DNA from: Streptomyces sp. NBC_00690
GTDB lineage: Bacteria; Actinomycetota; Actinomycetes; Streptomycetales; Streptomycetaceae
DNA length: 64,000 nucleotides
Assembly (NCBI RefSeq): GCF_036226685.1
Contig: NZ_CP109009.1
Span: 6,413,501-6,477,500 of the forward strand
Direction of reading: 5' to 3'
The translations under genes and the position numbers were made by a program. Below, in pieces: positions 18,137 through 23,933 of this stretch. Within the stretch, counting starts at the first letter, position 1. Each line of letters starts with the position of its first letter. The notes beneath the pieces were generated by a model. It was given only the letters and a program-made list of their open reading frames with translations. It searched no databases and was not told the DNA's origin.

Positions 18137-20362
18137 TCACGCCTGAACCGCCAGGACCAGCGGAAACACCCCCGTCGCTCCAGCCTTCAGCAGGAGTCGG
18201 GCCGCCACAGCCAAGGTCCAACCAGATTCAGAAATATCATCGACCAGGAGAACGGGGCCGCCCCCGCTGAGGGCCTCCGCCAGACCTGGCGGTACGACGA
18301 AGGCGTCGTACAAGGTTCGCACGCGCTGAGCGCTGTTCGTACGCGAGGGTCGGGACTCCATGCCCTCCGGGGTGTAGGCCACCGAGCCCAGCAGCGGCAA
18401 GCGACCCACCTCGGCGATGCGCGCACCCAGAGAACCGACCAACTCAGGGCGGCTTCGGGAAGCCACGGTCACCACGCCGATCGGACGGGCAGGCGCGTCA
18501 GCTGCCCCGGACGCCCAGCCCCCCGGGCCCTTCGCCCAGTCGGCGAGCACTGTCACGACAGCCTGGGCCACATCATCCGGGATGGGGCCGTCGGACGCCT
18601 GCGGAGCCAGCAGCGGCCGTAGCCGGTTGCCCCAGCCGATGTCGGAGAGCCGGCCCAGCGCCCGCCCGGCGGAAGCCTGCTCGGAGACGGGGATCCGGCC
18701 CTTGAGCCCGACGCCCACGGACGCGAGCCCCGTCGGCCACATCTTCCGGGGCTCCACCTCGACACCCGGCCGGCTGAGCTCACCGCGGGCGGCTTCCAGG
18801 GCCGCATCCGAAACCTTGTCGCTGAACCGACCGCCCGCACAGTTGTCGCAGCGCCCACAGGGTGTTGCTGCCTCGTCGTCCAACTGCCTTCGGAGGAACT
18901 CCATCCGGCACGCCGAGGATCGCGCGTACTCCCGCATCGCCTGCTGTTCGACCTCCCGCTGCTTGGCCACCCGGGCGAAACGGTCGGCGTCGTAGGTCCA
19001 GGGCTGACCGGTGGCCGTCCAACCGCCCTTGACCCGCCGCACCGCCCCGTCCACGTCCAGCACCTTCAGCATGGTCTCCAGCCTGGTGCGCCGCAGGTCC
19101 ACGAGCGGTTCGAGCGCGGGCAGGGAGAGCGGACGATCCGAACGCGCCAACACATCGAGCGTGCGCCGGACCAACTCCTCAGGAGGAAAGGCGACCGAGG
19201 CGAAGTACTTCCAGATCGCTTCGTCCTCCTTGCCCGGCAACAGGAGCACCTCGGCGTGCTCCACACCACGGCCGGCGCGCCCCACCTGCTGGTAGTAGGC
19301 GATCGGCGAGGAAGGTGAGCCCAGGTGGACGACGAATCCGAGGTCGGGCTTGTCGAAACCCATGCCGAGCGCGGAGGTTGCCACGAGGGCCTTGACCCGG
19401 TTGGCGAGGAGGTCGTCCTCGGCCTGCTGGCGGTCGGCGTTCTCCGTGCGACCGGTGTACGAGGTGACCACATGCCCGCTGCGGCGAAGGCTGGTGGTGA
19501 CTTCCTCGGCCGCGGCGACCGTGAGTGTGTAGATGATTCCGGATCCTGGCAGCTCCCCGAGATGGTCGGCGAGCCAGGCCAGCCGGGTGGCCGCATCGGG
19601 CAGTTGCAGGACGCCCAGACTCAGGCTCTCCCGATCCAACGGGCCGCGGAGCACCAGGGCTTCGGACTCTCCACCTGCGCCACCACCCGTGCCCAGCTGT
19701 TCGGCGACGTCAGCCGTGACACGGGCGTTGGCCGTCGCAGTCGTCGCCAGCACGGGAACATCAGAGGGCAGTTCGGCCAACATGGTGCGAAGCCGACGGT
19801 AGTCGGGGCGGAAGTCGTGACCCCAGTCGGAGATGCAGTGGGCCTCGTCCACCACGAGCAGCCCGGTGGCGGCGGCGAGTTGGGGCAGCACCTCGTCCCG
19901 GAAGCCAGGGTTGTTCAGACGCTCCGGGCTGACGAGCAGAACATCGACGCCGCCTGCGGCGATCTCCTGTTGGATCTGGGCCCACTCCTCGCTGTTCGAC
20001 GAGTTGATCGTCCGGGCGTTGATCCTCGCCTTGGCGGCTGCTTCCACCTGGTTGCGCATGAGGGCGAGCAGTGGGGACACGATGACGGTCGGGCCGCTGC
20101 CCCGTCGACGCAGCAACGAGGTCGCCACGAAGTAGACCGCGGACTTGCCCCACCCCGTCCGTTGAACGACCAGCGCCCGACGTTTCTGAGCGACGAGCGC
20201 CTCGATCGCACGCCACTGGTCGTCACGCAGCCGAGCTCGGCCCGTGTCGTCCGAGACGAGACGGGCCAGGACGGCGTCGGCCTCCGCCCGCAGACCCGCG
20301 AGGTCAGTGATGTCGACCGGGTCGGTGGAACGCCTGTCATCCGTTTGGTCTGCGTTGGTCAT
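18137..20362 (-). CDS. recQ: RecQ-family helicase with phosphoribosyltransferase-like C-terminus
   Basis: A 741-residue 3'-5' DNA helicase of the RecQ group. Walker A appears as RTGWGKS (usual TGGGKS altered), the DEAH box as VVDEAHCISDWGHDFRPDYRRL, and motif VI as QQVGRAGRG. The zinc-binding cysteines follow in CRMEF...CGRCDNC. Instead of an HRDC domain, residues ~600-741 look like a ComF-type phosphoribosyltransferase, with the PRPP-loop-like VLLVDDISESGWT and the following AARLLLKAGA helix. ATG 20362 was chosen; the longer upstream frame runs through the DnaA-box palindrome and looks non-coding. It is divergent from the DUF4192 gene, sharing a 111-bp promoter region. Confidence 0.9.
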   Translation of the reverse strand: MTNADQTDDRRSTDPVDITDLAGLRAEADAVLARLVSDDTGRARLRDDQWRAIEALVAQKRRALVVQRTGWGKSAVYFVATSLLRRRGSGPTVIVSPLLALMRNQVEAAAKARINARTINSSNSEEWAQIQQEIAAGGVDVLLVSPERLNNPGFRDEVLPQLAAATGLLVVDEAHCISDWGHDFRPDYRRLRTMLAELPSDVPVLATTATANARVTADVAEQLGTGGGAGGESEALVLRGPLDRESLSLGVLQLPDAATRLAWLADHLGELPGSGIIYTLTVAAAEEVTTSLRRSGHVVTSYTGRTENADRQQAEDDLLANRVKALVATSALGMGFDKPDLGFVVHLGSPSSPIAYYQQVGRAGRGVEHAEVLLLPGKEDEAIWKYFASVAFPPEELVRRTLDVLARSDRPLSLPALEPLVDLRRTRLETMLKVLDVDGAVRRVKGGWTATGQPWTYDADRFARVAKQREVEQQAMREYARSSACRMEFLRRQLDDEAATPCGRCDNCAGGRFSDKVSDAALEAARGELSRPGVEVEPRKMWPTGLASVGVGLKGRIPVSEQASAGRALGRLSDIGWGNRLRPLLAPQASDGPIPDDVAQAVVTVLADWAKGPGGWASGAADAPARPIGVVTVASRSRPELVGSLGARIAEVGRLPLLGSVAYTPEGMESRPSRTNSAQRVRTLYDAFVVPPGLAEALSGGGPVLLVDDISESGWTLAVAARLLLKAGATGVFPLVLAVQA

Positions 20363-20410
20363 GGCTCCATGCAACAGGACGACACCGACAATGCGCGAAC
20401 GGTGTCTCCA

Positions 20411-20436
20411 CCCTGTGGATAACGTTATCCACAGGG
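20411..20436. promoter_or_regulatory. Perfect palindrome of two inverted DnaA boxes
   Basis: A 26-bp perfect palindrome made of TGTGGATAA (20414-20422), CG, and TTATCCACA (20425-20433), flanked by CCC/GGG. Both halves are exact copies of the strong DnaA box TTATCCACA in inverted orientation, 2 bp apart. It lies 49 bp upstream of the recQ start and 38 bp upstream of the DUF4192 start, i.e. within both divergent promoters. Confidence 0.8.
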
Positions 20437-20473
20437 GTCGCGGGGCTGGAGGCGGCACGGGATCGTCGTGGCC

Positions 20474-21997
20474 ATGAACAGCCACCATGAATCCATGGGT
20501 ACCGATGAGCAGCAGGTCACCCTGCGTAGTGCCGCCGAACTGGCCGATGCGCTGCCCTACGTCCTGGGATATCACCCGAGCGACTCGATCGTCGTCGTAG
20601 CACTGCATGGCAGCCGGGGCCGCTTCGGCGCCCGCGTGCAGCTGGGCATTCCGCCCTCACCGTTGGAATGGCCCTCGGTCTCGCAGCAACTCGCGGAATG
20701 CCTGATCGAAGGCAGCGAGCGTCACGGCCGCCGCCCCGACGGCATCGTCGTCTTTCTCTGCCAGGACCCCGCCGACAACGAGAGCGCCCGAGCGGCGATG
20801 GAGCGGCTACGACCGCTCTCCCACTCGCTGAGGACCGCGTGCGGTGCTCTCGACGTCCCGGTCTACGAGGCGCTGTGCATCTCCGCAGGACAGTTCTGGT
20901 CGTACTGCTGCCCCGATGACCGTTGCTGCCCCTCGGAGGGAAACGAGCTGGCGATTCCGGGTACGTCCGTCATGGCCGCTGCGGCGGCCTACGCAGGAGT
21001 CCAGGTGCGGGGATCGCAACGGGAGCTGGAGGCGCGACTACGGCCTCCCTCGGTGGGATCCAAGACGGATCAGCGCAGGGCGCTGGACAGGGCGGGCACC
21101 GCGATGGTGACCCGACTGCTCGAAGGAGGTGCACGGACGGCGATCTCCGACGAGACCCTGGCGCTGGCGGGTGTGGTGATGGCGCGGATCGCCGGAACGC
21201 ACCCATCGGCGGCTGACTACGAGGCTGACGTCGAGGACGACTCCCTCCTCACGGTGGACGAGGCCGCCCTCCTGATCCATGGACTTCAGGACCGGGAAAC
21301 CCGGGACAAAGCCGCCCGATGGTCCGAAGGCTCCGCCGCCGAATCTGCACTGCGGCTCTGGCGGGCCCTGTCGCGACGGTGCGTCAGCCCGTACGCGGAG
21401 TATGCCGCTCCAACCCTGACCCTCGCGGGCTGGACGACATGGTCCCTCGGGGACAAACCCGCTGCCAGGGTCGCCTTCGGACTCGCCCTCAGCAGGGACC
21501 CTCAATACATCCTTGCCCGACTTTTCCAACAGGCGTGCAACCAGGATCTCGACGTGGAGACCGTCCGCCAGTGCCTTCGCGTGGGTCACGGCCAGGCCAT
21601 CGCCGCCACCACAGTGGCTGGACGAACGGCATCGGAGGCGCGAGAAGATCAGTCGTCAACGGTGCTCCCGCCCGTGCCCGAGGCGAACGCACGGTCGAAG
21701 GCGACCGCCGAAACCGTTGAGAGCACCGATACGGGCAAACCCTCCGAGGTGCAGATGACTATCGCCATCTCGGCGGAGAAGTCCGCACCGATCATCGCGC
21801 AGCACGACTCCACGGACTCCCGGCGGCGCCCGAGGCAGGCTCCGAAGAAGCACCCGGAGCCTTTGCGAACAGGGCGCAGTCGACCGCCTTCGCCCGCGAA
21901 GCCGCGCAAGGCCGACCGGGCCCGGCCTGGCAGCACTCGCGTCGACCGGGCACGGCGGCACGATCCGGATCGCCGGGAAACGGAGAAGGAGGGATGA
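20474..21997 (+). CDS. DUF4192 family protein
   Basis: A 507-residue cytoplasmic actinobacterial protein of unknown function. The N-terminal region carries the family signature VTLRSAAELADALPYVLGYHPSDSIV, and residues ~20-380 form the conserved domain with a WTTWSLGDKPAARVAFGLALSRDP helical-repeat-like part. The last ~120 residues are low complexity, basic and Pro-rich, with RRPRQAPKKHPEPLR and PPSPAKPRKADRARPG, suggesting nucleic-acid contact or disorder. The start may be ATG 20474 or GTG 20468. The recQ-DUF4192 divergent arrangement and shared DnaA-box palindrome hint at a DNA-metabolism context. Confidence 0.8.
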   Translation: MNSHHESMGTDEQQVTLRSAAELADALPYVLGYHPSDSIVVVALHGSRGRFGARVQLGIPPSPLEWPSVSQQLAECLIEGSERHGRRPDGIVVFLCQDPADNESARAAMERLRPLSHSLRTACGALDVPVYEALCISAGQFWSYCCPDDRCCPSEGNELAIPGTSVMAAAAAYAGVQVRGSQRELEARLRPPSVGSKTDQRRALDRAGTAMVTRLLEGGARTAISDETLALAGVVMARIAGTHPSAADYEADVEDDSLLTVDEAALLIHGLQDRETRDKAARWSEGSAAESALRLWRALSRRCVSPYAEYAAPTLTLAGWTTWSLGDKPAARVAFGLALSRDPQYILARLFQQACNQDLDVETVRQCLRVGHGQAIAATTVAGRTASEAREDQSSTVLPPVPEANARSKATAETVESTDTGKPSEVQMTIAISAEKSAPIIAQHDSTDSRRRPRQAPKKHPEPLRTGRSRPPSPAKPRKADRARPGSTRVDRARRHDPDRRETEKEG

Positions 21998-22955: not shown

Positions 22956-23187
22956 CGGGAGTTCTGACGGGAGGTCTGGCACAAGGCGTCTGACGGGTGT
23001 TCAGCCCTGCGCGCCCATGTCGACGGTGGCAAGGGCTCCAGGGGCCGACGCGGGAAGGCGGACGGGCCTCATGGGTCCGGAGCAGGACTTTCGGCGGCGG
23101 CTCTGCGGTGCAGTCGCGGGGGCGAGCCACACATTCATGAACCGTCGCCGATCAACCGTGACCACTGACCTGTAGGGGAGTTCCCTC

Positions 23188-23463
23188 GCCGGGAGCCGGG
23201 AGCCGGGAGCCGGGAGCCGGGAGCCGGGAGCCGGGAGCCGGGAGCCGGGAGCCGGGAGCCGGGAGCCGGGAGCCGGGAGCCGGGAGCCGGGAGCCGGGAG
23301 CCGGGAGCCGGGAGCCGGGAGCCGGGAGCCGGGAGCCGGGAGCCGGGAGCCGGGAGCCGGGAGCCGGGAGCCGGGAGCCGGGAGCCGGGAGCCGGGAGCC
23401 GGGAGCCGGGAGCCGGGAGCCGGGAGCCGGGAGCCGGGAGCCGGGAGCCGGGAGCCGGGAGCC
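23188..23463. repeat. Perfect tandem array, 39 copies of a 7-bp unit
   Basis: The unit GCCGGGA is repeated 39 times without a single substitution from 23188 to 23460, followed by a partial GCC. Because 7 is not a multiple of 3, every frame encodes the same heptapeptide repeat (EPGAGSR on plus, LPAPGSR on minus) with no stop codon. The perfection implies recent expansion or strong homogenisation by slippage; copy number is probably variable between strains. G-runs on one strand could also form quadruplex-like structures. Confidence 0.97.
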
Positions 23464-23833
23464 TTTGGGGCGGGTGCGTTTCGGCGGTGGCGCATGGAGC
23501 CTCAGCGCCGTGATGAAGGGCTCTCGGCACCGAGAGCGCATCTCCTGGGCATGGCCAGGCGTCCGGCGCGGGGCGTTGGACTGGTTGCTCCCGGCTGCGG
23601 TGTACAGGTCGGGGCGTGTGACTGGGGTGAGGGTGCATGTGGTCGTGGGCCCTCGGCGCCTCAATGCCGCCCATGACGCGCTGAGGGGCTGGGTGGTCCG
23701 CTGCGCCGCCCAGGGCTCGCATTGGCACCCCGGGCGCACCGAAGTGCCCGTGGTGCGGCAGGGAGCCTTCTGGGCGCCTTGGCGGGGTCGGTAGGGACTG
23801 GGTCGCGCACCGAGAGAGGCTGGACACGCAAGG

Positions 23834-23875
23834 GTGCTCGGACTCGCCGCCCCTTTCAGGGCGGAGTCCGAGCAC
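23834..23875. terminator. Terminator-like hairpin in the repeat region
   Basis: The arms GTGCTCGGACTC and GAGTCCGAGCAC pair over 12 bp, and an inner CGCCC/GGGCG adds 5 bp after a 2-nt bulge around a CTTTCA loop. No gene with known function ends nearby, so its partner transcript is unclear. Confidence 0.5.
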
Positions 23876-23933
23876 GGGGCAGGCCAGCCAAACACGGGGC
23901 AGGCCAGCCAAACACGGGGCAGGTCAGGCAAAA
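23874..23933. repeat. 20-bp direct repeat, two exact copies plus one degenerate
   Basis: ACGGGGCAGGCCAGCCAAAC occurs at 23874-23893 and 23894-23913, and a diverged copy follows at 23914-23933. It abuts the hairpin and lies about 410 bp from the 7-bp array. Confidence 0.8.

What the first reader, a model, noticed from the sequence alone, without database searches (positions are those of the whole stretch)
20411..20436. Back-to-back perfect DnaA boxes in the recQ/DUF4192 divergent promoter
The sequence shows two exact TTATCCACA boxes in inverted orientation 2 bp apart inside a 26-bp perfect palindrome. Two exact 9-mers adjacent by chance are unlikely in high-GC DNA. The site lies within both promoters of a helicase gene and a gene of unknown function. 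DnaA may tie recQ/DUF4192 expression to replication initiation, or the site may titrate DnaA. The sequence alone does not choose between these.
Basis: partly seen in the sequence, partly recalled or inferred. Interest (0 to 1): 0.75.

Follow-up and report, generated by a model that had tools for sequence, protein, structure and literature searches.

The report
Conserved DnaA boxes before DUF4192
A likely binding site for the replication-starting protein DnaA sits at a nearly fixed distance in front of an uncharacterised gene (DUF4192) in many actinobacteria, and in this Streptomyces it lies back to back with a second such site that faces the DNA-repair helicase gene recQ, which suggests that DnaA helps control these genes.

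Summary
The 26-bp palindrome is real (window 20411-20436); it is the genome's only divergent TTRTCCACA pair with a 0-30 bp gap. The palindrome is not the conserved unit; each half is. The right box faces DUF4192: an exact TTATCCACA ends 39-41 bp before the DUF4192 ATG in 89 of 97 Streptomyces loci, and in 6 more a reversed or one-mismatch box ends 40 bp before it. Outside Streptomyces, TCCACA ends 49-54 bp before a DUF4192 start in 41 of 78 loci, with T, T, R enriched in front as in a DnaA box, against 3 of 28 recQ and 2 of 27 dnaG loci. The left box lies 50-52 bp from the recQ start in 36 of 36 testable Streptomyces loci, while the gap between the boxes ranges from 1 to 47 bp. So two divergent promoters each carry their own box, and here a short intergenic region puts them back to back. 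Fixed distance to a start codon favours transcriptional control over titration. DnaA binding, and activation versus repression, are not shown. DUF4192's predicted N-terminal domain has a RadC-like MPN fold without a conserved histidine. My searches found no earlier report. Verdict: a new, widely conserved candidate DnaA-regulated promoter.

The parts
20411..20436 (.). 26-bp perfect palindrome made of two back-to-back DnaA-box 9-mers, 2 bp apart
20425..20433 (+). right box TTATCCACA, facing DUF4192; 40 bp from box end to ATG
   Evidence: same distance (39-41 bp) in 89 of 97 Streptomyces loci; TCCACA 49-54 bp upstream in 41 of 78 non-Streptomyces loci
20414..20422 (-). left box TTATCCACA, facing recQ; 51 bp from box end to recQ ATG
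   Evidence: 50-52 bp in 36 of 36 testable Streptomyces loci
20434..20473 (+). 40-bp stretch from right box to DUF4192 ATG; length held at 39-41 bp, so it probably holds the core promoter (inference)
20363..20413 (-). 51-bp stretch from left box to recQ ATG, with a conserved TGTC-N12-TTGCAT promoter-like block
   Evidence: window copy read
20474..21997 (+). DUF4192 gene (PF13830); the conserved start is ATG 20474 (the longest ORF begins at GTG 20468)
18137..20362 (-). recQ-type DNA helicase gene, divergent neighbour

Best explanation
Each half of the palindrome is a separate DnaA box that serves one of two divergent promoters. The right box, widely conserved among actinomycetes, lets DnaA bind just upstream of the DUF4192 promoter. 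The left box does the same for recQ within Streptomyces. In this lineage the intergenic region is so short that the boxes sit 2 bp apart, so two DnaA molecules could bind side by side and link the two promoters. SHOWN: the boxes, their fixed distances to the two start codons, conservation across Streptomyces and, for DUF4192, in at least one locus of 15 of 23 sampled other families, and a DnaA-box-like base preference. INFERRED: that DnaA is the binder; that binding controls transcription with the replication cycle or DnaA level; and that the DUF4192 box is an activator-type site (it would lie near -49 to -41 if the transcript is leaderless; start sites are unknown).
For: Exact TTATCCACA facing DUF4192, 39-41 bp from its ATG, in 89 of 97 Streptomyces loci (87 by script; L142 and L146); one more has a one-mismatch box and five a reversed box (four exact, one with a mismatch), all six at 40 bp. 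Outside Streptomyces TCCACA is the commonest 6-mer at any offset up to 200 bp upstream of DUF4192, 39 of 78 loci at 50-53 bp against a mean of 0.32 for permuted 6-mers; T, T and R are enriched in front (21, 18 and 36 of 41; P 7e-8, 1e-5, 2e-7). recQ (3 of 28) and dnaG (2 of 27) do not show it (Fisher P 7e-5 and 2e-5). Left box 50-52 bp from recQ in 36 of 36 while the inter-box gap runs from 1 to 47 bp. E. coli DnaA in vivo prefers two boxes 2-3 bp apart (PMC11317965, Results section read).
Against: No binding or expression data. Outside Streptomyces the first two bases are weakly kept (T in 21 and 18 of 41), and TCCACA elsewhere in the same DNA also tends to follow T (36 of 62; these include further upstream copies), so that enrichment is not an independent control. 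37 of 78 non-Streptomyces loci lack the core at 49-54 bp, and in 8 of 23 families no sampled locus has it at 50-54 bp. The loci are related and hand-picked across families, so P values are rough. Ten of 50 loci with the close pair lack a divergent recQ but keep the left box (L016 and L028 have contigs of the same length and are probably one genome), which the one-box-per-promoter reading does not explain. 45 of 95 Streptomyces loci have no exact upstream divergent box within 60 bp. E. coli pairs in PMC11317965 are tandem, not back to back.
Confidence: 0.7

Rival explanations
1. Another, unidentified actinomycete transcription factor recognises (NN)RTCCACAG before DUF4192, and the likeness to DnaA boxes is coincidental.
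For: The core RTCCACAG is kept better than the leading TT outside Streptomyces; the site is specific to DUF4192 rather than to replication genes in general.
Against: T, T and R are still enriched at the three leading positions; Streptomyces keeps the full consensus; the position is kept with the box reversed in five loci; spacing between the two boxes varies freely, unlike a dimer operator.
Confidence: 0.18
2. A titration or DnaA-inactivation site (datA-like): the pair soaks up DnaA and the genes nearby are incidental.
For: Two perfect high-affinity-type boxes; few such boxes in the genome (74 exact TTRTCCACA).
Against: Only two boxes, with no further TTRTCCACA in the 64-kb window; fixed distances to two start codons; in many lineages a single exact box remains at the fixed place.
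Confidence: 0.06
3. A DARS-like DnaA-reactivating site: opposed boxes hold two DnaA molecules head to head and release ADP.
For: E. [quoted passage not shown]
Against: No third exact box in the window; inter-box spacing from 1 to 47 bp in relatives.
Confidence: 0.03
4. No protein function: a chance or structural palindrome (cruciform or hairpin).
For: A 26-bp perfect palindrome could form a hairpin.
Against: The palindrome breaks up in relatives while the boxes stay; 0.02 pairs are expected in the window even with 3 mismatches.
Confidence: 0.02

Closest known systems
E. coli DnaA regulon with double DnaA boxes (nrdA, polA, purH; PMC11317965, Results section read)
   Same: Consensus TTATCCACA boxes 2-3 bp apart upstream of genes for replication, repair and nucleotide synthesis.
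   Different: E. coli pairs in that paper are tandem and one partner is usually degenerate; here both boxes are perfect and back to back, and the conserved target is DUF4192. Binding is not shown here.
Streptomyces and mycobacterial dnaA autoregulation (review PMC8203912, passages)
   Same: Actinomycete DnaA binding to a promoter region.
   Different: That is the dnaA promoter itself; this is a distant promoter of an uncharacterised gene.
DARS1/DARS2 of E. coli (PMC8682772, passages)
   Same: Two DnaA boxes in opposing orientation.
   Different: No third exact box; spacing not kept in relatives.
RadC and other MPN/JAB1-fold proteins (PDB 2qlc), for the DUF4192 N-terminal domain
   Different: 7% identity; no invariant or near-invariant histidine in 69 homologues; helical C-terminal part.

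Membership tests
DnaA-regulated promoter | match to the DnaA box TTRTCCACA | tested here: met
   two exact boxes
DnaA-regulated promoter | box conserved at a fixed place relative to the gene | tested here: met
   89 of 97 Streptomyces loci at 39-41 bp; 41 of 78 other loci at 49-54 bp
DnaA-regulated promoter | DnaA binds in vitro or in vivo | not testable with these tools
   needs gel shift or ChIP-seq
DnaA-regulated promoter | transcription responds to DnaA | not testable with these tools
   needs reporter or RNA data
DARS-type site | three DnaA boxes in the core, I and II opposed (PMC8682772) | tested here: not met
   only two exact boxes in the whole window; weak boxes were not searched for near the site
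datA-type or titration cluster | dense cluster of boxes (recalled) | tested here: not met
   two boxes only
oriC | many clustered boxes | tested here: not met
   the oriC-like cluster of this genome is at 4,355,941-4,356,503 with 14 boxes of up to one mismatch; flanking dnaA and dnaN were not checked
RadC/JAMM metalloprotein (DUF4192 protein) | MPN/JAB1 fold | tested here: met
RadC/JAMM metalloprotein (DUF4192 protein) | JAMM H-x-H metal motif (recalled) | tested here: not met
   no histidine invariant or conserved at 90% in 69 homologues

The most novel reading that the evidence does not exclude
DUF4192, a RadC-fold protein of unknown function, is a widely conserved actinomycete member of the DnaA regulon, its expression tied to replication initiation by a box kept at a nearly fixed distance from its start, and it may itself act back on initiation or on fork repair together with recQ.
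Probability: 0.25. Interest if true: 0.82.

Novelty: new member of a known kind. Interest (0 to 1): 0.6.

Why it matters
DnaA as a transcription factor has been studied mostly outside actinomycetes. A single gene of unknown function that keeps a DnaA box at nearly the same distance from its start in almost all sampled Streptomyces loci, and in many other actinomycete families, is a directly testable lead to what couples replication initiation to other events in these bacteria. It also gives a first functional handle on DUF4192, a term found in one paper of the library. The anatomy separates two things that the palindrome hid: one box per promoter, rather than one operator.

Tried and rejected
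Palindrome as the conserved operator: rejected, because spacing varies while each box keeps its distance to its own gene.

Helical phasing of the two boxes: distinct gaps cluster near multiples of about 10.5 bp (exact boxes, 444 of 20000 random sets as extreme; cores, 14 of 20000), but merging neighbouring gaps removes it (5134 of 20000), and gap classes follow the tree (19 changes on an ill-resolved tree of 95 rows). Not claimed.

recQ as the widely conserved target: rejected; TCCACA 49-54 bp upstream in only 3 of 28 non-Streptomyces recQ loci. A general replication-gene box: dnaG 2 of 27 outside Streptomyces and 1 of 3 within; recD2 2 of 10 Streptomyces; not conserved.

Plasmid-borne DUF4192 paralogues: no box in the 200 bp before L276 and L277. 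For L275 the gene start was not located, so it is no test. No phage relative. Sequence search of solved structures gave no real relative.

Rows set aside. Streptomyces count: two second copies (L161, L162) dropped; three of the 100 genomes with DUF4192 (G032, G044, G095) not fetched for it. Of 97 loci, L072 shows no box, L160 could not be tested, L089 has one mismatch, L087, L096, L113, L117 and L159 have a reversed box (L096 with a mismatch). Distance was measured to the first ATGA after the box, 87 by script; L142 and L146 were added after a longer look. Column counts used only the 55 loci whose DNA reached the ATG, all chosen for an exact box, so box invariance there is partly by selection; recQ starts recognised by six sequence variants in 46 of 88 loci; 10 of the 46 have no exact distal box within 60 bp. 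Class set: 3 of 81 loci had no start in reach. mixes loci from two searches, so a few genomes may be counted twice (L016 and L028, L017 and L032 share contig lengths). One search did not list DUF4192 itself, because its locus did not pass the coding filter.

Literature: 'DUF4192' is in one paper. Searches on DnaA with Streptomyces, ChIP-seq, regulon or titration listed no report of this site; I saw listings and passages, not whole papers. Subscription papers on Streptomyces DnaA-box clusters are not in the library, so prior mention there is not excluded.

Full report
The site. CCCTGTGGATAACGTTATCCACAGGG lies at window 20411-20436. Its two TTATCCACA boxes (20414-20422 minus, 20425-20433 plus) are the only TTRTCCACA in the window. 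In the 9.17-Mb genome TTATCCACA occurs 31 times and TTGTCCACA 43 times, and the divergent pair with a gap of 0-30 bp occurs only here. Named relatives found with the DUF4192 protein are all Streptomyces (23 of 23 loci).

Where else the pair occurs. The divergent 2-bp pair is found in 34 of 199 genomes of the genus, with no match to the reversed pattern. These are 35 sites; I looked at 34, and 33 lie before DUF4192 (L027 has only a partial DUF4192 match). The exception, L035, lies inside another coding sequence. One site (G113, contig 277) was not looked at. The convergent 2-bp pair occurs in 8 of 199. With gaps of 0-12 bp the divergent pair is in 58 of 199; some of those further sites are at other loci. 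Of 53 loci first collected, 50 have a 1-3 bp pair before DUF4192; in 40 recQ is the divergent neighbour and in 10 it is not (a few genomes are probably counted twice). So the site goes with DUF4192 first.

The right box. DUF4192 is in 100 of 101 genus genomes. I examined 97 of those 100 primary loci. An exact TTATCCACA facing the gene ends 39-41 bp before its ATG in 89 (87 by script; two more). In one the box has a single mismatch and in five it is reversed (one of these with a mismatch), all six at 40 bp. One locus shows none and one could not be tested. GG follows the box in 86 of 87. In the oriC-like cluster of this genome (4.356 Mb, 14 boxes with up to one mismatch) G follows in 11 of 14.

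Beyond Streptomyces. PF13830 is found in 251 of 296 genomes drawn across the class, 28 of them of the same genus. I collected upstream DNA of 81 non-Streptomyces loci in 23 families. This is not a random draw: 60 were picked from the listed matches to span families, and 21 are the non-Streptomyces loci among the best matches. Of 78 with a usable start, 39 have TCCACA ending 50-53 bp before a candidate start; permuted 6-mers average 0.32. No other 6-mer at any offset up to 200 bp is as common, apart from shifted copies of the same motif. With 50-54 bp, 41 of 81 loci and 15 of 23 families have it. The three bases in front are enriched for T, T and R, so the motif is TTRTCCACA, weaker in its first two letters than in Streptomyces. 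Several loci carry a second copy about 27-31 bp further upstream in the same direction. By one definition (49-54 bp) DUF4192 scores 41 of 78, recQ 3 of 28 and dnaG 2 of 27. In family f4, which includes mycobacteria by the homologues found, only 2 of 21 loci have the core at 50-54 bp; several have it at 59-65 bp.

The left box. In 46 Streptomyces loci the divergent recQ start could be recognised, and 36 of these also have an exact distal box. In all 36 that box is 50-52 bp from the recQ start (51 in 27), although the gap between the two boxes runs from 1 to 47 bp. By position the left box belongs to recQ. Between box and recQ start the sequence is conserved, with TGTC-N12-TTGCAT ending 6 bp before ATG; in the window it reads TTGTCGGTG-N8-TTGCAT. 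This resembles the PafBC-dependent DNA-damage promoter RecA-NDp; passages of two papers confirm that promoter class, but the motif letters are recalled. 45 of 95 Streptomyces loci have no exact upstream divergent box within 60 bp, so the recQ box is the less conserved one, and outside the genus recQ mostly lacks it.

Reading. Two single boxes, each fixed to its own gene, explain the data better than one palindromic operator; a short intergenic region in this lineage makes the palindrome. A fixed distance to a start codon points to control of transcription. If the DUF4192 message is leaderless, the box would cover about -49 to -41, a position common for activators; this is inference. In this genome, 6 of 73 exact boxes have a coding-like start 37-43 bp downstream and 5 of 73 have one at 49-54 bp, against 0 and 0 in the backward direction; they include dnaG and recD2, both at 40 bp. 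Those two boxes are not conserved in relatives, which makes the DUF4192 box stand out. Actinomycete DnaA dimerises through domain I, and Streptomyces DnaA has a long domain II (PMC13270200, passages); this could let molecules on boxes at varied spacing interact, which is inference.

Weak points. There are no binding data. Genomes are related, so counts are not independent. The weak leading T's outside Streptomyces leave room for another factor, and ten loci keep the left box without a divergent recQ. I found nothing in print on this site, but the library lacks most subscription papers.

Noticed in passing
window 20369-20391 (minus): The recQ promoter reads TTGTCGGTG-N8-TTGCAT ending 6 bp before the ATG, like the PafBC-type DNA-damage promoter (motif letters recalled); TGTC-N12-TTGCAT is conserved in 46 Streptomyces loci.
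   Followed up: partly
window 20474-20947: The DUF4192 N-terminal domain is predicted to have a RadC-like MPN fold with no conserved histidine.
   Followed up: partly
L289, L272, L258, L262 (own genome): Exact DnaA boxes lie 40 bp before dnaG and recD2, 51 bp before a RluD-like gene and 89 bp before recA; the dnaG and recD2 boxes are not conserved in relatives.
   Followed up: partly
L165:1420-1751 (G000 4268419-4268750): Five boxes with up to one mismatch lie upstream of serS, a possible extra-oriC cluster.
   Followed up: no
L164:4741-5154 (G000 4403740-4404153): Five boxes with up to one mismatch, four of them exact, lie within about 410 bp.
   Followed up: no
G080, G115, G153, G031: The same divergent pair TGTGGACAAACGGTTATCCACA with a 4-bp gap recurs in four genomes; L063 is one example. 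Its neighbouring genes were not looked at.
   Followed up: no
L035:1501-1520: A divergent 2-bp pair lies inside an open reading frame that looks like an antirepressor-type gene (by eye).
   Followed up: no
L115, L125, L126, L133 upstream of the DUF4192 box: Streptomyces loci without an exact close pair share a block like TGTCCCTGAT just upstream of the proximal box.
   Followed up: no
window about 23001-23911: A run of repeats that reads PAPGSRL over and over in reading frames of the minus strand.
   Followed up: no
PMC10494377: Arthrobacter plasmids are said to share DNA repeats 5' of DUF4192, DprA and ParB genes (passages); whether these repeats are DnaA boxes was not checked.
   Followed up: no
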